A stretch of DNA of 37,610 nt from Actinomycetota bacterium (GTDB taxonomy: Bacteria > Actinomycetota > Acidimicrobiia > Acidimicrobiales > MedAcidi-G1): NCBI GenBank assembly GCA_014381745.1, contig JACNLA010000034.1, positions 30,645 to 68,254 of the forward strand, in the 5' to 3' direction. This document shows, in pieces, positions 1,678-16,699 of this stretch; within the stretch, counting starts at the first letter, position 1, and every line of letters begins with the position of its first letter. Position numbers and translations under genes: made by a program. The notes under the pieces were generated by a model. It searched no databases. It was given only the letters and a program-made list of their open reading frames with translations, and was not told the origin of the DNA.

Positions 1678-2145
1678 ATGCTCGAGGTTGGAACGGTCGC
1701 ACCGGCGTTTTCGGCGCCTGATCAGAACGGCGACATGGTCAGTTCCGATGATCTGGCTGGGTCGTGGGTGGCGCTGTGGTGGTATCCGAAGGCGTCGACG
1801 CCTGGTTGAACGATTCAGGGACAGGGGTTCCGTGATCGAACCTCATCATTTTCGCAGGCCGGTGCGGTGGTTGTCGGCGCAAGCTTTGACACGGTCGAGG
1901 AGCAGAAGGCCTTTGCCGATGAGCAGGGCTTTGAGTATCCGTTGTTGTCTGATCCCGACAGGGTGATGGGTGCCGCCTACGAGGCTGTTCGCCCTGTCGA
2001 CGATCCCATTGCTGCATTTCCGTACCGCTATTCGTATCTGATCGCTCCGGATGGGACGATTGCGGCCACGTATGACCTGAACTCTTCGCAGAGCCTTGAC
2101 GAGCATGCCGACGAGGTCCTCGCCGACATCTTGTCCCGGTCCTGA
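1678..2145 (+). CDS. selenocysteine-containing peroxiredoxin (BCP/PrxQ-like), TGA at codon 44 read as Sec
   Basis: A 155-residue thioredoxin-fold peroxidase of the AhpC/TSA-BCP type. Translation from ATG 1678 (AGGGGG six bases upstream) gives VGTVAPAFSAPDQNG, then WWYPKASTPG, then TGA at 1807-1809. The same frame continues without another stop as TIQGQGFRDR... to TGA 2143-2145. In this family the motif is YPK-x-x-TPG-C-T, with the cysteine as peroxidatic residue, so the TGA lies exactly on the catalytic position. No cysteine occurs anywhere else, so no resolving thiol is available; the BCP resolving cysteine position is Gln (IQGQGFRD). A hairpin directly behind the TGA (1824-1844) resembles a bacterial SECIS. 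The likely role is reduction of peroxides by a one-selenol mechanism in the cytoplasm. The alternative is a nonsense mutation or base error in a Cys codon; no selA/B/C/D genes lie in the window to confirm Sec decoding. Confidence 0.85.
1824..1844 (+). promoter_or_regulatory. candidate bacterial SECIS hairpin
   Basis: GGGGTTC (1824-1830) pairs with GAACCTC (1838-1844), seven pairs with one G-T wobble, closing a seven-base loop CGTGATC that contains the GT expected in SelB-binding loops. The loop starts about 22 bases after the TGA at 1807-1809, within the spacing usual for bacterial SECIS elements. It lies inside the coding sequence. Folding only by eye. Confidence 0.55.
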
Positions 2146-2169: not shown

Positions 2170-3387
2170 TTGACTGGTCTTGCCCGCCCGCTGGAGGGTC
2201 TGTCGGTTGTTGAGGGTTCGGCGTTTGTGGCTGCGCCGTCGGGTGGTATGGCCCTGGCGCAGTTGGGTGCCGACGTCGTGCGCTTCGACCGGATCGGTGG
2301 TGGCATAGACCACAAGAGGTGGCCTCTTACCGATGAGGGCGTCAGCCTCTACTGGAATGGATTGAATCGTGGCAAGAGGTCGATTGCCGTCGATCTTTCT
2401 GATGCGGGTGTGCAGGAGCTGCTGGGTGAGTTGATTGGTGCTGCTGGCAACTTTTTGACCAACTTTCCGGCGGTGGGGTGGCTGTCGTGGGAGCAGTTGA
2501 GTGAGGGCATCGAGGATCTGGTGATGGTCGCCATCACGGGTAGCCACGATGGCACCACGGCGGTCGATTACACGGTGAACTGTGCGGTTGGGTATCCGGC
2601 GGTCACGGGCCATGTCGACGATTCGAGGCCGGTCAACAACGTGGTCCCGGCATGGGATCTGGTGTGTGGGCAGATGGCGGCGTTGGGCCTTTTGGCTGCG
2701 GATCGCCACAGGTCGATCACCGGCGAGGGCCAGTTGGTTTCGTTGGCTTTGGCCGATGTGGCGTTGGCTGCGGTTGGTGCGTTGGGGAATCTGGCTGAGG
2801 CGCAGGTGAACGGGACGCAGAGGGAGCGGGTCGGCAACGACCTTTACGGGGCCTACGGCAGTGATTTCCCGACGGCCGATGGCCGTCGGGTGATGGTGGT
2901 GGCGATCAGCCCCAAGCAGTGGAGGGGTCTGTTGGCGGCTACGGGTACTGCCGATGAGGTTGGGGCTCTTGCGGGGCGGCTGGGGCTGGATTTCGCCGAT
3001 GAGGGTGACCGGTTCAGGGCGCGTGACGATCTGGGTGGCCTGTTTGGTCCGTGGTTCGCTGAGCGGGGTCTCGATGAGGTGGCCGGGGTGCTTGACGCAC
3101 ATGGCGTCTGCTGGGGCCCGTATCGGAGTTTCATGGAGTTGGTCGATGAGGATCCCCGGTGTTCGATTGCCAACCCGTTGTTCGCTGAGTTGGATCAGCC
3201 CGGTGTGGGGAGTCATTTGGTGCCGGGGTCTCCTCTGGCCTTTGGTGGGCCGGGAGCGGTGGAGCGGGGTGCGTCGACGGCGCCGCTGTTGGGTGAGCAC
3301 ACCGAGCAGGTTCTGAGCGAGGACCTGGGCCTCTCGCCGGCTGAGGTGGGCGAGTTGTTCGACAGGGGTGTGGTGGCAGCTCCCTGA
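2170..3387 (+). CDS. mct: class III CoA transferase, probable mesaconyl-CoA C1-C4 CoA transferase (2-methylfumaryl-CoA isomerase)
   Basis: A 405-residue CaiB/BaiF-family protein. Its N-terminus (VVEGSAFVAAPSGGMALAQL, residues 13-32, then RFDRIGGGIDHKRWP) closely follows what I recall of the Chloroflexus and Accumulibacter mesaconyl-CoA transferases, which move CoA intramolecularly from the C1 to the C4 carboxyl of mesaconate. The catalytic aspartate is Asp163 in PAWDLVCGQMAALG. LDxAGRTGEGQ-type and C-terminal LGEHTEQVL segments are present. The start is TTG 2170, 24 bases after the peroxiredoxin stop, so the two are probably co-transcribed. The next gene, convergent with a 14-base gap, resembles the following enzyme of the same pathway, which strengthens the call. 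Other family III transferases remain possible. Confidence 0.85.
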   Translation: MTGLARPLEGLSVVEGSAFVAAPSGGMALAQLGADVVRFDRIGGGIDHKRWPLTDEGVSLYWNGLNRGKRSIAVDLSDAGVQELLGELIGAAGNFLTNFPAVGWLSWEQLSEGIEDLVMVAITGSHDGTTAVDYTVNCAVGYPAVTGHVDDSRPVNNVVPAWDLVCGQMAALGLLAADRHRSITGEGQLVSLALADVALAAVGALGNLAEAQVNGTQRERVGNDLYGAYGSDFPTADGRRVMVVAISPKQWRGLLAATGTADEVGALAGRLGLDFADEGDRFRARDDLGGLFGPWFAERGLDEVAGVLDAHGVCWGPYRSFMELVDEDPRCSIANPLFAELDQPGVGSHLVPGSPLAFGGPGAVERGASTAPLLGEHTEQVLSEDLGLSPAEVGELFDRGVVAAP

Positions 3388-3401
3388 CCGGGTTCTGGCG
3401 T

Positions 3402-4394
3402 TCAGGCCCCCCAGGTGACGAGGTGCCAGTCCAGTACGGGTGCCACTGTGTCGTCGCGTTCGGCTTCGACGGTGACCCGAAACGCTCTCAGGTTGCCGCC
3501 GGCAGCGGGCCGTTCATCTAGGAGGGTGTGGCTGCATCCGAGCACGTCTCCTTCGTAGACGGGTCTGGTGTGGTCACATGCCTGCCATCCCAGGACCGTC
3601 GCCGTTGACGGCATGAGGCGGTGGAGGGATGCCTGGGCGAGGCCGATGGTGTGGCCTCCGTATACGAGACGCCGGCCATCGCCGGTGGCCGGGTCGCGGT
3701 GGACTGGTGCCAGGTTTTGGGTGAGTCGGACCAGTTCGGTTGCTGAGGTGACCGTGTCGCGTAGGGGGTCGATGCGTGTGGTTCCGGGTTCCCATTGGTT
3801 GTTGTCTGCCAGCGGGGCTGGGTCCCATCCGGTGGGGATGTGACCGGTCCAGTCGCTCAGGTTGATCTGTGGGTCTACGCCTCCGAGGTCGTCGTGGTGG
3901 CCGGTGTCGGCATTCGGGTCGCGCATGTGGAGCATGGCGCATCTCTCGTATTCCACGACCGTGTCGCCGTCGTCGAGGCAGGTGGTGGTGATTCCGAGCA
4001 GGGCCAGTCCGCGGGCGGGTCTGTCGGGGCGCGCTGTGAGCTGTCGGAGGCCGCGGATCTCAACGGTCGTCTCGAGGGTCTCGCCGTGGCGTACTGCCTT
4101 CTGGAGGATGACGCCGCGGTAGAAGAGGTTGGCTATGACGGCGCGTGTGGCGACGGTGCTCTGTCCGATGGAGGTGTGCATCACCAGCGCCGGGTTGACG
4201 AGGGCTCCGGGTGCGCCGGTTACGGCTTCTGCCATGGGTTTGCTGAGGGTGGTGGCCAGGGGGTCGCCGCAGATGGCCTGGTAGGTGGCGGCTTCGCCCG
4301 GTCCGATTGTCATGGCCGGTGCCGGGTTGAGCGTCTGGCCGACGGTCAGGTCATCAAAGAACGGTCCTGTGGGTCGGTTCACGGTTGGGAGCAT
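3402..4394 (-). CDS. meh: double-hotdog hydratase, probable mesaconyl-C4-CoA hydratase (3-methylfumaryl-CoA hydratase)
   Basis: A roughly 330-residue MaoC-type protein. FFDDLTVGQT near the N-terminus, VIANLFYRGVILQKAVRHGE, then VEIRGLRQL and a YERCAMLHMRDPNA segment mirror the Chloroflexus mesaconyl-C4-CoA hydratase, which hydrates mesaconyl-C4-CoA to (S)-citramalyl-CoA. The second half carries APVHRDP and RRLVYGGHTIGLAQA, typical of the C-terminal hotdog. Start choice is uncertain: ATG 4394 gives about ten residues before FFDD as in homologues, while an in-frame ATG at 4430 adds twelve; neither has a good ribosome binding site. It converges on mct and the two would act in sequence. The lyase (mcl) and C1 hydratase (mch) needed to complete the route are not in the window. 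Confidence 0.83.
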   Translation of the reverse strand: MLPTVNRPTGPFFDDLTVGQTLNPAPAMTIGPGEAATYQAICGDPLATTLSKPMAEAVTGAPGALVNPALVMHTSIGQSTVATRAVIANLFYRGVILQKAVRHGETLETTVEIRGLRQLTARPDRPARGLALLGITTTCLDDGDTVVEYERCAMLHMRDPNADTGHHDDLGGVDPQINLSDWTGHIPTGWDPAPLADNNQWEPGTTRIDPLRDTVTSATELVRLTQNLAPVHRDPATGDGRRLVYGGHTIGLAQASLHRLMPSTATVLGWQACDHTRPVYEGDVLGCSHTLLDERPAAGGNLRAFRVTVEAERDDTVAPVLDWHLVTWGA

Positions 4395-4549
4395 GCCAGT
4401 TGGGAGGGGTCGGCGACCACCTCGCGCCATGTTGCTACCGGGTAGTCATCGTGGGAACGTATGCTCGGCTGGCAATACCATCGCTAGTAGAGATAGATAG
4501 GTTCTCTAACAATCATCACGGGCCTCTGTTCAGCAGGTCCGCTGTTTCC

Positions 4550-4611: not shown

Positions 4612-4950
4612 ATGTCACAGACAGCGGCTAACACGTACGTCGACTGGCAGACACAGTCCTGGATGAGCGACGGCCTCTGTTCGGGGAGGAGCGATCTGTT
4701 CTTCGCCCCGTTCGCAGAGCGTCCAGAGGCCAGGGTGCGCCGCGAATCCAGGGCGAAGGATCTGTGTGCATCCTGTTCGTCGAGCGTGGAATGCATGGCC
4801 TATGCCCGCGACAACCGGGAGTTGGGCTTCTGGGGTGGTGAGTCCGAGTCCGAGCGGGCCACGGCCGGCTTTGCTCCTACGACCCCGATAATCGGGCGCC
4901 GTCAGGTGGCCGCCCAGCGGGCCGCAGCCGCCCTCGCAGAGGCCAGCTGA
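4612..4950 (+). CDS. WhiB-family iron-sulfur transcriptional regulator
   Basis: A 112-residue WhiB-like protein of normal size. Four cysteines, Cys23, Cys52, Cys55 and Cys61 (C-x28-C-x2-C-x5-C), are placed to hold the [4Fe-4S] cluster. GFWGGESESER (residues 72-82) is the G[VIF]WGG turn that contacts sigma factor region 4 in the family. The C-terminal tail is alanine- and arginine-rich and probably contacts DNA. AGGGGGAG just before ATG 4612 is a strong ribosome binding site. WhiB proteins control division, redox or nutrient responses in Actinobacteria. Which paralogue this is cannot be told; no obvious target gene is adjacent, since meh is divergent and gdh is convergent. Confidence 0.95.
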   Translation: MSQTAANTYVDWQTQSWMSDGLCSGRSDLFFAPFAERPEARVRRESRAKDLCASCSSSVECMAYARDNRELGFWGGESESERATAGFAPTTPIIGRRQVAAQRAAAALAEAS

Positions 4951-12784: not shown

Positions 12785-14584
12785 TCATGTTGCGCACTCC
12801 GAGTCGCCGATTTCGGCCACGTAGGGGCCTGTCTCGTCGAAGTCCACGTAGTAGTCGGGGCCGTCCTCGGGGGTGGGGAACACGTCCAGGTCCTTGAGGG
12901 CAGTGGCGACGCCTGGGGCTCCTCCGGAGCGATCCAGCCAACTGTGGAACGCTTCGCCTGCTTCTCGTTCGTCCACGAATCGGCTGATGACCCTTACGGC
13001 CGCCTCGGGGGCGTTCTTGGCCGGCAGGCGCAGAGCCTTTTGTCCGAACTGGATCTGTTCGGCGCCGACGTGTCCACCCAGCAGCATCTGGTAGCCGGGA
13101 GCGGCCTTTCCGTGGGCCCGCCGTTCTGCGCCGAAGAATCCGATGTCGGCGGTGTGGTGTTGGCCGCAGCTGTTCGTGCAGCCTGAGATGTTGGTGCGGA
13201 CTCCGCCCACCTCGGCGAGGCCGGCTTCGTCGAGGGCGTCGCCGATTGCCTGGGCCAGGCCGCGGCTCTGCGTGACGGCCAGGTTGCATGTGTCGGATCC
13301 GGGGCAGGCCACGACGTCGCGGGACAGCTCGGCTCCGGGTCTGGCCATGCCGGCGGCTTCGAGCATGTCGTAGAGCGCAGGTAGCTGGCGTTCATCGAGG
13401 TTGCGGACGATGAAGTTCTGCCTGTTCGTGACGCGGATCTCAACGTCCAGGGAGCGTACGACGGTCGCCATTGCACGGAACTGGTCGCCTGTGATGTCGC
13501 CCAGGGCGCACCATGCGTAGGCGGAGACCGTGCCGTTGCCGATTCCGCGGACAACGTTGGCCTCGGCCCAGCGGTCATACGGGGTCTTGGCGCCGATGCT
13601 TACCGGCACTCCGTGGCCGACCGGTGTGGGGGTGGAGCCCGGTGCGATGCCGGCCGGATTGTCGCCCCATTTGCTGACCACGTCGGGGATGCCACCGGGC
13701 CATGTGGCGGATGCGGGCAGGAGCTTGCGCGTGGCGAAGATGCGTCGTCGGACCTCGTCGATGCCCAGTTGGTCGACGACCCACTTCATGCGGGCACGCA
13801 GCTTGTTGTCGCGGTTGCCGGTCTGGTCGAAGACCCGCAGGATGGATTCGATGGTGGGGAGCAGGTCTTCTCTGGTGGTGAACTCCTCGAGTGCGAGTGC
13901 GGGGAACGGTGTGGTCCCGAGACCACCGGCTATGTAGACGCGAAAGCCCGCTTCGACGCTGCCGTCGTCGAACGTGCGGCTGGTCGCCACGACCCCGGCA
14001 TCGTTGAACATGGCCTGACCGCAGTCGGTGGCACATCCGGAGAAGTTGATCTTGAACTTGCGGGGTAGGCGTTGGGCGATGGGGTTGCGCACGAAGTGCC
14101 TGTAGGCGGCTTCTGCCCATGGGGTGATGTCGAGCACCTCGAAGGGGCATGCTCCGGCCAGGTGGCAGCCCTGCACGTTGCGGACCGTGTCGCCGCAGGC
14201 TTCCCGGGTGGTCAGGCCGACCGAGGCCAGCTTCTTCATGACCTCTGGGACCTCGGTCAGTTCCACGAAGTGGAATTGCAGGTTCTGGCGGGTGGTTATG
14301 TGTCCCCAGCCGCGGCTGTGGTCCTCTACGAGGGAGCCAAGCATGTCGAGCTGGTCGGCTGTCATGGACCCGTAGGGGACCTTGACGCGAACCATCTGGT
14401 TGGTCCCGCCCTGCCGCTGGCCGTAGATGCCGTTGTTGAGGCGGAACACCCGGAAAACGTCTTCGTCGATGCGTCCGGTCTGGTAGCCGGCCAGCATCTC
14501 CTCGAACTTGACTATGTCGGCCTCGATCTCGGGGTCTATCGGTATGACGAGGCTGGCCGGGGTGGGGCTGGTTAGTTGGGCCAT
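12785..14584 (-). CDS. siroheme- and [4Fe-4S]-dependent sulfite/nitrite reductase
   Basis: A 599-residue assimilatory reductase with the usual two-fold repeat of ferredoxin-like and siroheme domains. The C-terminal half holds C-x5-C (Cys427, Cys433) and C-x3-C (Cys469, Cys473), the standard cluster/siroheme ligands. The N-terminal half shows an equally complete set, Cys140, Cys146, Cys184 and Cys188, with almost the same spacing. The start at ATG 14584 follows GGAGG and gives the family N-terminus; the frame continues open upstream only as an arginine-rich shadow. It overlaps cobA by 13 bases in an operon with cysH, so reduction of sulfite to sulfide is more likely than nitrite reduction. The electron donor is presumably ferredoxin, since no flavoprotein subunit is present. 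Confidence 0.92.
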   Translation of the reverse strand: MAQLTSPTPASLVIPIDPEIEADIVKFEEMLAGYQTGRIDEDVFRVFRLNNGIYGQRQGGTNQMVRVKVPYGSMTADQLDMLGSLVEDHSRGWGHITTRQNLQFHFVELTEVPEVMKKLASVGLTTREACGDTVRNVQGCHLAGACPFEVLDITPWAEAAYRHFVRNPIAQRLPRKFKINFSGCATDCGQAMFNDAGVVATSRTFDDGSVEAGFRVYIAGGLGTTPFPALALEEFTTREDLLPTIESILRVFDQTGNRDNKLRARMKWVVDQLGIDEVRRRIFATRKLLPASATWPGGIPDVVSKWGDNPAGIAPGSTPTPVGHGVPVSIGAKTPYDRWAEANVVRGIGNGTVSAYAWCALGDITGDQFRAMATVVRSLDVEIRVTNRQNFIVRNLDERQLPALYDMLEAAGMARPGAELSRDVVACPGSDTCNLAVTQSRGLAQAIGDALDEAGLAEVGGVRTNISGCTNSCGQHHTADIGFFGAERRAHGKAAPGYQMLLGGHVGAEQIQFGQKALRLPAKNAPEAAVRVISRFVDEREAGEAFHSWLDRSGGAPGVATALKDLDVFPTPEDGPDYYVDFDETGPYVAEIGDSECAT

Positions 14585-15360
14585 TGGGTGCCTCCGTGTT
14601 CGGTGGCCAGCTGGGTGATGAGGTCGTCGAAGCCCCTGGCAGCGGTGCCCGAGTCGGTGACGTCGAGGCCGGCCACGGCTCCGATCACGAGCACGGCAGG
14701 TGGGCGAATGGTGAGGTCGGCCATGTCGGCCAGGGTGGTTCTGTGGACCCGCTGATGGGTGGTGGTGGCCGATTCGACGGCTGCGACGGGGGTGTCGGGG
14801 GCAAGGTCGCCGGCCATGAGGCGCTCGGCTATGACGGCTGAGCGCGTGGCTCCCATTAGCACCACGAGGGTGGTTCCCAGTCGGGCCGCCGCTTCCCAGT
14901 CGATGGCCTTTTCGGCTGTGGGGTCCTGGTGTCCGGTGATGACGGTGAAGCCGCTGGAGTATCCGCGCATGGTCACGGGAATCCCGACCGCAGCGGGGCC
15001 GGCGATGGCGGAGCTGATTCCGGGTACGACCTCGACGTCGATGCCGGCTGCACGGAGGGCCTCGGCCTCCTCGCCGCCACGTCCGAAGACGAAGGGGTCG
15101 CCGCCCTTGAGGCGTACAACGGTGTGGGCGCGGCCGGCTGCTTCGACGAGCACCTGATGGATGCGTTCCTGGGCGTCGGCTGGTCCGCCGGGCCGCTTGC
15201 CGACGTCTATGACCTCGGCCCAGGGTGCTATCAGTGCCAGGACGCCTGGGTCGATGAGGCGGTCGTGGACGACGATGTCGGCGCTGTCGAGAAGCCTGGC
15301 TGCCCGGAGGGTGAGCAGGTCGGGGCTGCCGGGGCCCGCTCCGACCAGGTGGACGGTCAT
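14572..15360 (-). CDS. cobA: uroporphyrinogen-III C-methyltransferase
   Basis: A 262-residue SAM-dependent methyltransferase that makes precorrin-2 from uroporphyrinogen III. VGAGPGSPDLLTLRAARLL (6-24) and VVRLKGGDPFVFGRGGEE (about 81-98) are the diagnostic family motifs, and VPGISSAIAGPAAVGIPVTMRG follows. It overlaps the preceding siroheme gene by 4 bases (ATGA at 15357-15360) and the reductase by 13. In this organism the CysG functions are therefore split into two polypeptides. The context says its product feeds siroheme for the reductase; a second use in cobalamin synthesis cannot be excluded. Confidence 0.95.
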   Translation of the reverse strand: MTVHLVGAGPGSPDLLTLRAARLLDSADIVVHDRLIDPGVLALIAPWAEVIDVGKRPGGPADAQERIHQVLVEAAGRAHTVVRLKGGDPFVFGRGGEEAEALRAAGIDVEVVPGISSAIAGPAAVGIPVTMRGYSSGFTVITGHQDPTAEKAIDWEAAARLGTTLVVLMGATRSAVIAERLMAGDLAPDTPVAAVESATTTHQRVHRTTLADMADLTIRPPAVLVIGAVAGLDVTDSGTAARGFDDLITQLATEHGGTQWPN

Positions 15361-16022
15361 GGTGTTGGCTCCAGCGCTCGTGCTTCGGTGAGTCCCAGGC
15401 CTGCCCGAAGGGCCTGTCGTGCAACGTCAAGGTCGCCGCGGCGAATGGTGTCGACGAGCTTTTCGTTCAACACGGTGTCCCATGCCGGGGATTCGCTGGT
15501 ACCGGTCGCTTCGCGCAGTTCGGCGCGCACCTCTGAGGCGAGGGCCATGAGGGTGGCGTGTTCAGGGCCGATGTCATCAAAGAGGCTTTTCCGCAGCCAG
15601 CGGGAGATGGCGGGGCTGTTCCCGTTGGTCGAGACGGTCACCTGCAGGTCGCCGTGGCGGGATATGGCGGGGAGCGTGAAGGTGCAGCGTTCGGGGTCGT
15701 CGGCACTGTTCAGCCATACGCCTGCCGCCTCGGCATCGCGGTGCACCTGGCTGTCCACGTCGGGGTCACCGGTGGCGGTGACGGCCAGGCGGTACGAGGC
15801 CACCTCGCCGCGTTGGTAGGGGCGTTCGTGCCACCGCAGCCCGCTGTCGTCGGCGATCTCGTCGACGGCGGTGGGGGCGACAACGGTGACGTCGGCACCG
15901 GCGTCGAGGAGGCCGGCCACCTTGCGCGCGGCGACCGGTCCTGCTCCGACGACGAGGGCGCGCCGGCCCGTGAGGTCCAGGTTCACGGGGTAGGGGGTGG
16001 GGTTCACAGGTGGATTCCGCAT
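15357..16022 (-). CDS. precorrin-2 dehydrogenase / sirohydrochlorin ferrochelatase
   Basis: A 221-residue Met8p/CysG N-terminal-type protein. The NAD site is VGAGPVAARK (25-34). The catalytic aspartate region is NSADDPERCTF (105-115, Asp108 or Asp109), and STNGNSPAISRWLR precedes the C-terminal helical domain. It oxidises precorrin-2 to sirohydrochlorin and inserts iron to give siroheme. The start at ATG 16022 overlaps cysH by 19 bases, so translation is probably coupled. It is slightly longer than the core domain because it carries the C-terminal helix region that CysG also has. Confidence 0.93.
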   Translation of the reverse strand: MRNPPVNPTPYPVNLDLTGRRALVVGAGPVAARKVAGLLDAGADVTVVAPTAVDEIADDSGLRWHERPYQRGEVASYRLAVTATGDPDVDSQVHRDAEAAGVWLNSADDPERCTFTLPAISRHGDLQVTVSTNGNSPAISRWLRKSLFDDIGPEHATLMALASEVRAELREATGTSESPAWDTVLNEKLVDTIRRGDLDVARQALRAGLGLTEARALEPTP

Positions 16023-16699
16023 TCGGTTCTGGCGGTGCCGGCCCAGCGGCCGCTCCTGGTTTCGCAGCCGACTGTTGAGCGTTCGGTGCAGGGCCAGCAG
16101 CCAATGGAGTCGTAGCCGTCATCGCCGAGGGGGTTCACGATGATTTCTCTGGCCTCCATGTATGACTCGACGTCGTTTGTCGGCCAGGCGGCGATGGGGT
16201 TTACCTTTATTAGGCCTCGCCGGTCGATGGAGACGATGGGTGTTTCGGACCGGGTTGCGCTGTCGGTCCGCCGCATGCCAGCCAGCCACGCCGCCTTGCC
16301 GGTGAGTGCCTGGTCGAGCGGTGCAACCTTGCGGGCGGCACAGCAGGCGTCGGTTCCGCTGGCCCAGAGGTCCACTGTCGCCGGGTCGGGTCGCTCGACT
16401 CGCAGGTTCATCTCGTAGCGGACCTGCGCCCTGCGCAACACGTCGAGGGTTTCGGCGAAGTGGAAGCCGGTGTCGAGGAATACCACCTCGATGTCGGGGT
16501 CAACCTGGAGTGCCAGGTCCACGAGGAGGGTGTCGGAAAAGGACGTGGCAAGTGCCAGGTTGCTCCCGAAGGTTTCGACCGCCCATTGGATGATCTGGCT
16601 GGGGTGGGTCTTCTCGAAGCACGCGTTCAGAGAGTGGATCTCGGAGCGCGAGAGGTCTGTCGATCTGCGTATCTGGACGGTGGTGTCGGATGGCGCCAT
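16004..16699 (-). CDS. cysH: phosphoadenylyl/adenylyl-sulfate reductase, APS-reductase type
   Basis: A 231-residue PAPS/APS reductase. ATSFSDTLLVDLA (51-63) is the nucleotide loop, and the C-terminal TECGIHL carries the catalytic Cys227. A Cys-Cys pair (119-120) and C-x2-C (Cys201, Cys204) form the [4Fe-4S] signature that marks the APS-reducing class, so adenylyl sulfate is the probable substrate. It is the first gene of the overlapping operon cysH-siroheme synthase-cobA-reductase. ATP sulfurylase and sulfate transporter genes are absent from the window. Confidence 0.95.
   Translation of the reverse strand: MAPSDTTVQIRRSTDLSRSEIHSLNACFEKTHPSQIIQWAVETFGSNLALATSFSDTLLVDLALQVDPDIEVVFLDTGFHFAETLDVLRRAQVRYEMNLRVERPDPATVDLWASGTDACCAARKVAPLDQALTGKAAWLAGMRRTDSATRSETPIVSIDRRGLIKVNPIAAWPTNDVESYMEAREIIVNPLGDDGYDSIGCWPCTERSTVGCETRSGRWAGTARTECGIHL

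What the first reader, a model, noticed from the sequence alone, without database searches (positions are those of the whole stretch)
2170..4394. mct and meh side by side: a mesaconyl-CoA route in an actinobacterial setting
Both gene products resemble, over their full lengths as far as I can recall them, the enzymes that move CoA on mesaconate and hydrate mesaconyl-C4-CoA to citramalyl-CoA in the 3-hydroxypropionate bicycle. They allow co-assimilation of glyoxylate and propionyl-CoA without full autotrophy. They converge rather than forming one operon, and the genes for the flanking steps (mcl, mch) are not in the window. A selenoperoxiredoxin in probable operon with mct is an unexplained pairing.
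Basis: partly seen in the sequence, partly recalled or inferred. Interest (0 to 1): 0.7.

Follow-up and report, generated by a model that had tools for sequence, protein, structure and literature searches.

The report
Mesaconyl-CoA isomerase with a Mch-like hydratase
A family of mostly marine actinobacteria carries, as part of its core gene set, an enzyme that moves coenzyme A from one end of mesaconate to the other, next to a hydratase that is not the one first guessed but belongs to the mesaconyl-C1-CoA hydratase/Rv0216 type; they probably serve heterotrophic carbon assimilation, not autotrophic CO2 fixation.

Summary
The mct call holds. Window 2170-3387 encodes a full-length mesaconyl-CoA C1-C4 transferase homologue: 58% identical to the Chloroflexus enzyme, catalytic Asp, Arg and Tyr kept, though below NCBI's equivalog cut-off. 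The meh call does not hold. Window 3402-4430 encodes a double hot-dog protein whose nearest relatives by sequence and fold are M. tuberculosis Rv0216 (no known function) and the mesaconyl-C1-CoA hydratases Mch/MeaC. It has no FAS1_DH_region match and only weak fold similarity to itaconyl-CoA hydratase. It keeps MeaC's catalytic Asn/His and carboxylate-binding Arg. The pairing is real: mct is in 47/47 genomes of the family and the hydratase in 45/47. They co-occur across other families (7/10 versus 1/42) and sit in tandem in Pseudonocardiales, Solirubrobacterales and a myxobacterium. The genome has a malyl-CoA lyase, but of the serine-cycle type beside PEP carboxylase; two sister genera lack it and keep the pair. 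Isocitrate lyase and methylmalonyl-CoA mutase are present. Crotonyl-CoA carboxylase/reductase and any recognisable Meh are not. Best reading: a heterotrophic mesaconyl-CoA module, either glyoxylate/propionyl-CoA co-assimilation or C5-dicarboxylate use. Mct in Actinobacteriota was reported before; the Rv0216-type partner appears new. The selenoperoxiredoxin upstream is real and conserved.

The parts
2170..3387 (+). [quoted passage not shown]
   Evidence: TIGR04253 516.5 bits against a cut-off of 725; 58% identity to 8apq; Asp163, Arg50, Tyr134, Asn98, Phe99, Asp133 kept
3402..4430 (-).
   Evidence: Rv0216 41% identity, VIA Z 39.6; MeaC 29%, Z 36.9; Asn239/His244, Arg163, Asn101, Tyr257, Gly258 match MeaC's malate-binding residues
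1678..2145 (+). Bcp-like peroxiredoxin with selenocysteine (Sec) codon, first gene of the probable operon with mct
   Evidence: PF00578 105.5 bits with TGA read through; best solved relatives are Bcp peroxiredoxins; synteny in relatives
1807..1809 (+). in-frame TGA, probable Sec codon
   Evidence: TGA in 11 of 11 loci read; tRNA-Sec in the genome at 67.5 bits
332..1534 (-). acetyl-CoA C-acyltransferase (thiolase), conserved neighbour of mct in 32 related loci; start set at the second methionine
   Evidence: NF005890 664.6 bits, above its cut-off of 580; cluster 3

Best explanation
The two genes form a mesaconyl-CoA module. Mct moves CoA from C1 to C4 of mesaconate through an Asp163-bound intermediate. 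The neighbouring MeaC/Rv0216-type hydratase (de)hydrates the branched dicarboxyl-CoA: beta-methylmalyl-CoA to and from mesaconyl-C1-CoA, and possibly also mesaconyl-C4-CoA to and from (S)-citramalyl-CoA. [quoted passage not shown] Shown here: gene identity, conservation, co-occurrence, key residues, presence of Mcl and isocitrate lyase. Inferred: both activities, the direction, and above all the second hydration and the citramalyl-CoA cleavage, for which no dedicated enzyme was found.
For: Mct homology and residues. Hydratase homology to Mch/MeaC with conserved substrate residues. Pairing: mct in 47/47 and the hydratase in 45/47 genomes of the family; outside it 7/10 mct+ against 1/42 mct- families (Fisher p 7e-6). 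Adjacency in two arrangements, convergent in the family and tandem in Pseudonocardiales, Solirubrobacterales and a myxobacterium; the Chloroflexus Mct falls near the tandem group in a quick tree. Mcl present (Methylorubrum-type, 414 bits), with the Ala before the Mg-binding Asp that PMC3832036 links to propionyl-CoA binding. Isocitrate lyase present. No crotonyl-CoA carboxylase/reductase above cut-off, so no ethylmalonyl-CoA pathway. Haloarcula Mch hydrates both mesaconyl-CoA isomers (PMC5592240).
Against: The Mcl is of the serine-cycle subfamily (its 70-78% relatives lie in glyA-SGAT-mcl-mtkAB operons) and sits beside PEP carboxylase, so it is explained without mct. Genera g2 and g3 keep mct and mostly the hydratase but have only CitE-like lyases. 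No Meh found. Methylmalonyl-CoA mutase already handles propionyl-CoA. Mct scores below the equivalog cut-off, and homologues at 45-57% serve other operons.
Confidence: 0.45

Rival explanations
1. C5-dicarboxylate catabolism. Mesaconyl-C1-CoA comes from methylsuccinate, mesaconate or a similar acid (CoA transferase plus methylsuccinyl-CoA dehydrogenase), Mct turns it into the C4 ester, the hydratase makes citramalyl-CoA, and a CitE-type lyase or the Mcl cleaves it. No glyoxylate or propionyl-CoA is needed.
For: mct persists in sister genera without Mcl but with CitE-like lyases. In Marinobacter the acyl-CoA dehydrogenase of the mct operon matches (2S)-methylsuccinyl-CoA dehydrogenase at 617 bits. 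A Paraburkholderia plasmid has CoA transferase, PF13452 hydratase, CitE lyase, Ich-type hydratase and mct in one row. The genome has a homologue (392 bits) of that operon's first CoA transferase, next to an acyl-CoA dehydrogenase.
Against: No methylsuccinyl-CoA dehydrogenase or dicarboxylate genes near mct in this family. Chloroflexus Mct groups with the hydratase-associated Mcts, not with the Marinobacter group (quick tree). Not searched genome-wide.
Confidence: 0.3
2. The transferase acts on a different branched or cyclic dicarboxyl-CoA in aromatic, alicyclic or isoprenoid degradation; mesaconyl-CoA is not the substrate.
For: TIGR04253-like proteins at 45-57% lie in aromatic- or fatty-acid-degradation operons. 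ThnP is a characterised intramolecular CoA transferase for another dicarboxylate (PMC11659651, abstract only). CoA-phosphate arginines 75 and 104 and Arg314 of the Chloroflexus/Roseiflexus enzymes are not kept.
Against: Arg47, Tyr136 and Asp165 are kept in essentially all 83 sequences; the partner keeps MeaC's small-diacid-binding residues.
Confidence: 0.15
3. The neighbour is functionally Meh (hydrates mesaconyl-C4-CoA only), having evolved from the Mch/Rv0216 lineage.
For: It is the only hydratase tied to Mct, and Mct makes the C4 ester; Ich-type hot-dog enzymes also hydrate mesaconyl-C4-CoA (PMC12290011).
Against: Closest characterised relatives are C1-CoA hydratases; no PF13452; the fold is much nearer MeaC (Z 36.9) than itaconyl-CoA hydratase (Z 17.8).
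Confidence: 0.2
4. Part of a complete autotrophic 3-hydroxypropionate bicycle.
For: Mct is its marker enzyme (PMC9802188).
Against: No recognisable Meh, no glyoxylate-salvage operon, Mcl of the serine-cycle type. PMC9802188 found only 68.6% pathway completeness in 27 Actinobacteriota MAGs and argued against autotrophy. [quoted passage not shown]
Confidence: 0.03

Closest known systems
[quoted passage not shown] TIGR04253)
   Same: 58/57% identity over the full length; catalytic Asp165, Arg47, Tyr136, Asn100, Phe101, Asp135 kept; gate residue Leu43 is Ile
   Different: 516.5 bits, below the equivalog cut-off of 725; Arg75, Arg104 and Arg314 replaced by Ser, Val, Gly; no 3HP operon around it
Mesaconyl-C1-CoA hydratase / beta-methylmalyl-CoA dehydratase (Mch, MeaC; PDB 4e3e, 8hgn; PF19315)
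   Same: double hot-dog fold (Z 37-38, 315 residues); Asn226/His231, Arg142, Asn85, Tyr248, Gly249 all conserved
   Different: about 29% identity; 15.7 bits to PF19315, below its cut-off of 26.5; Phe71 is Ile, Ser79 is Thr
Rv0216 of Mycobacterium tuberculosis (PDB 2bi0), function unknown
   Same: closest solved relative: 41% identity to the window protein, 49-53% to the tandem mct partners of Pseudonocardiales, Solirubrobacterales and Myxococcota; Z 39.6
   Different: association of Rv0216 itself with an mct gene was not examined here
Ethylmalonyl-CoA pathway / serine cycle (Methylorubrum, Rhodobacter)
   Same: the genome's Mcl is of this type (5ugr 414 bits, 4l9y 322 bits)
   Different: no crotonyl-CoA carboxylase/reductase above cut-off
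Itaconate/methylsuccinate degradation cluster (PMC12290011)
   Same: C5-dicarboxyl-CoA hydratase and citramalyl-CoA lyase chemistry
   Different: that cluster as described holds no Mct; its hydratase is Ich

Membership tests
Mct (TIGR04253) | equivalog curated cut-off of 725 bits | tested here: not met
   516.5 bits
Mct (TIGR04253) | catalytic Asp165 with carboxylate-binding Arg47 and Tyr136 | tested here: met
   Asp163, Arg50, Tyr134
Mct (TIGR04253) | intramolecular C1-to-C4 CoA transfer on mesaconyl-CoA | not testable with these tools
   needs an enzyme assay
Meh (mesaconyl-C4-CoA hydratase) | FAS1_DH_region (PF13452), as in the Meh-type gene beside a plasmid mct (27 bits); that Meh carries this domain is recalled, no characterised Meh sequence was at hand | tested here: not met
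   no PF13452 match for the window protein even at E 10; no similarity between it and the plasmid Meh-type protein
Meh (mesaconyl-C4-CoA hydratase) | activity on mesaconyl-C4-CoA | not testable with these tools
   needs an enzyme assay
Mch/MeaC (PF19315) | Pfam gathering cut-off of 26.5 bits | tested here: not met
   15.7 bits; the Pseudonocardiales tandem partner reaches 29.8
Mch/MeaC (PF19315) | Asn/His dyad and Arg142 in a double hot-dog fold | tested here: met
   Asn239, His244, Arg163; VIA Z 37.7 and 36.9 to 4e3e and 8hgn
3-hydroxypropionate bicycle, glyoxylate-assimilation half | Mcl in the genome | tested here: met
   C6:68403-69347, best solved relatives are Mcl; serine-cycle subfamily
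3-hydroxypropionate bicycle, glyoxylate-assimilation half | separate Mch and Meh | tested here: not met
   PF13452 and PF01575 scans find only a PaaZ fusion, an MFE2-type and a single hot-dog protein besides the window gene; genome 96% complete
[quoted passage not shown]
   genome searches spent
Ethylmalonyl-CoA pathway | crotonyl-CoA carboxylase/reductase (TIGR01751, 378.55 bits) | tested here: not met
   best 85 bits
Selenocysteine peroxiredoxin | in-frame TGA at the peroxidatic position plus decoding machinery | tested here: met
   11/11 loci have TGA; tRNA-Sec 67.5 bits; SelA/SelB not searched, hairpin after TGA not better than shuffles (z -0.97)

The most novel reading that the evidence does not exclude
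The Rv0216 family, which includes a M. tuberculosis protein of unknown function, are mesaconyl-CoA hydratases. Paired with Mct they handle both mesaconyl-CoA isomers, doing the work of separate Mch and Meh and giving a largely marine actinobacterial family a compact route from glyoxylate and propionyl-CoA to acetyl-CoA and pyruvate.
Probability: 0.2. Interest if true: 0.65.

Novelty: new variant of a known kind. Interest (0 to 1): 0.42.

Why it matters
It corrects the enzyme call: the neighbour is not Meh. It gives the Rv0216 family, structurally known since 2005 but without a function, a concrete testable substrate through a gene pairing conserved in two arrangements across several classes. 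It also warns that the 3HP marker TIGR04253 is widespread in heterotrophs in unrelated operons, so using it alone to call 3HP autotrophy is unsafe.

Tried and rejected
The Meh search by PF13452 and PF01575 found a PaaZ-type fusion (C7), an MFE2/ChsH3-type hydratase (C40) and a single hot-dog protein (C25), none recognisable as Meh; the C40 protein is 41-43% identical to the hydratase beside mct in gammaproteobacteria, so it is a spare candidate. Ethylmalonyl-CoA pathway: rejected, no crotonyl-CoA carboxylase/reductase. A pathway tied to Mcl: weakened, since the Mcl belongs to serine-cycle operons in relatives. No Rfam hit in the window. A first Pfam run on the peroxiredoxin was out of frame because I gave the wrong start; corrected; the NCBIfam run on it used the same wrong start and says nothing. 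P0002 has no plasmid homologues. The Mct tree is the quick version only; the careful search did not finish. Two cited papers (PMC7318340, PMC3165406) are not held.

Full report
CHECK OF THE OBSERVATION. The window is contig 26, bases 30645-68254, of a 2.19 Mb draft genome, 95.9% complete. Its closest named relatives are Acidimicrobiales/'Microthrix'-type MAGs, many of them marine. Two convergent genes lie at 2170-3387 (+) and 3402-4430 (-), 14 bases apart. The first is an Mct homologue: TIGR04253 516.5 bits over 398 residues, NCBI cut-off 725; best solved relatives are the Mct structures 8apq and 7xkg at E 1e-138 or better, with other family III transferases at E 1e-25 or worse; 58% and 57% identity. 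Of the residues named in PMC9813914 and PMC9196870, Asp165, Arg47, Tyr136, Asn100, Phe101 and Asp135 are kept, Leu43 is Ile, and Arg75, Arg104 and Arg314 are lost. The first group is essentially invariant in 83 family sequences, so it marks the family, not the pathway.

THE SECOND GENE IS NOT MEH. Its best solved relatives are Rv0216 (E 1e-58), then 4e3e and 8hgn, the mesaconyl-C1-CoA hydratases Mch/MeaC. A 16-sequence profile gives Rv0216 first and then the same two. A predicted structure (pLDDT 88) matches Rv0216 at Z 39.6, 4e3e at 37.7 and MeaC at 36.9; the next row is 22.5, and itaconyl-CoA hydratase is at 17.8. The window protein has no PF13452 match and falls short of PF19315 (15.7 against 26.5), although a tandem relative passes it (29.8). 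Every malate-contacting polar residue of MeaC given in PMC10164722 is conserved: Asn85, Arg142, Asn226, His231, Tyr248 and Gly249; Ser79 is Thr or Ser, Phe71 is Ile. So it very probably hydrates a small dicarboxyl-enoyl-CoA, and by kinship the C1 ester rather than the C4 ester.

THE PAIR IS REAL. mct is in 47 of 47 family genomes and in 10 of 52 other families of the order. The hydratase is in 45 of 47, and elsewhere in 7 of 10 mct-bearing against 1 of 42 mct-lacking families, one genome each (Fisher p 7e-6, which ignores kinship between families). In the family the genes are convergent; in Pseudonocardiales, Solirubrobacterales and a myxobacterium the hydratase is directly upstream in tandem. 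In a quick tree the Chloroflexus and Roseiflexus Mcts fall in the clade that holds these tandem pairs.

GENOME CONTEXT. The genome's only CitE-superfamily CoA-ester lyase is at C6:68403-69347, next to PEP carboxylase and near an aminotransferase. Its best solved relatives are the Methylorubrum and Rhodobacter Mcls (414, 322 bits), far ahead of Chloroflexus Mcl (156 bits) (the organisms of these entries are from my own knowledge and PMC3832036). Relatives at 70-78% lie in serine-cycle operons: glyA, serine-glyoxylate-type aminotransferase, mcl, mtkA (malate-CoA ligase, above its NCBI cut-off), mtkB. This Mcl is therefore well explained by a serine-cycle-like function; Mcls of this type also make beta-methylmalyl-CoA, and the Rhodobacter one forms citramalyl-CoA (PMC3832036). 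Sister genera g2 and g3 have no such Mcl but keep mct and mostly the hydratase. Isocitrate lyase and methylmalonyl-CoA mutase are present; crotonyl-CoA carboxylase/reductase is not; no Meh-like gene is recognisable.

WIDER FAMILY. Homologues of mct at 45-57% sit in other operons: with a methylsuccinyl-CoA dehydrogenase in Marinobacter (617 bits to 8ciw), in aromatic or fatty-acid degradation regions on plasmids, and in a Paraburkholderia plasmid cluster of CoA transferase, PF13452 hydratase, CitE lyase, Ich-type hydratase and mct. This supports mesaconyl-CoA as the common substrate in several of them, but not the 3HP bicycle as the common pathway.

MECHANISM AND VERDICT. Likely steps: (1) Mcl joins glyoxylate and propionyl-CoA; (2) the window hydratase dehydrates beta-methylmalyl-CoA to mesaconyl-C1-CoA; (3) Mct makes mesaconyl-C4-CoA; (4) hydration to citramalyl-CoA by the same hydratase or an unidentified one; (5) cleavage to acetyl-CoA and pyruvate. 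The genes for 1-3 are present; 4 and 5 are inferred. The main rival is C5-dicarboxylate catabolism without Mcl. Mct in Actinobacteriota was already reported from 27 MAGs, with co-assimilation proposed (PMC9802188). What I did not find described is the conserved Rv0216-type partner; only open-access papers were searched.

SELENOPEROXIREDOXIN. The Bcp-like peroxiredoxin at 1678-2145 has an in-frame TGA present in 11 of 11 loci read, and the genome has tRNA-Sec. In many family members a gap of its size separates an aldehyde dehydrogenase gene from mct; outside the family the aldehyde dehydrogenase abuts mct directly. The pairing with mct looks like inherited gene order; no mechanistic link is shown.

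Noticed in passing
1678-2145 +, TGA at 1807-1809: Bcp-like selenoperoxiredoxin with the Sec codon conserved in the family members read, just upstream of mct. Its stop codon TGA lies in frame with the mct start (TTG at 2170) here.
   Followed up: yes
L011:8400-12207 (G000:C6): Malyl-CoA lyase of serine-cycle type divergent from PEP carboxylase, with an aminotransferase and carbon-monoxide-dehydrogenase-like (coxM/coxS-type) genes nearby: possible C1 or CO metabolism in this family.
   Followed up: partly
L088:4449-5492, L097:572-2251, L111:4069-5079, L082:8782-9966: Hydratases in tandem with mct that are 49-53% identical to M. tuberculosis Rv0216, more than the window protein (41%).
   Followed up: partly
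L084:6302-7975: Acyl-CoA dehydrogenase of the mct operon in Marinobacter matches (2S)-methylsuccinyl-CoA dehydrogenase (8ciw, 617 bits): a methylsuccinyl-CoA dehydrogenase/Mct operon, with an SDR and a MaoC hydratase, of which I found no description.
   Followed up: partly
4612-4950 +: WhiB-like regulator gene conserved near the pair (PF02467 43.6 bits); cluster 12 of neighbours.
   Followed up: no
12785-16699 -: Sulfite/nitrite reductase and PAPS reductase genes: assimilatory sulfate reduction block.
   Followed up: no
L010:10283-10771: Short repeats and a run of N between ilvC and the thiolase gene, upstream of the window start.
   Followed up: no
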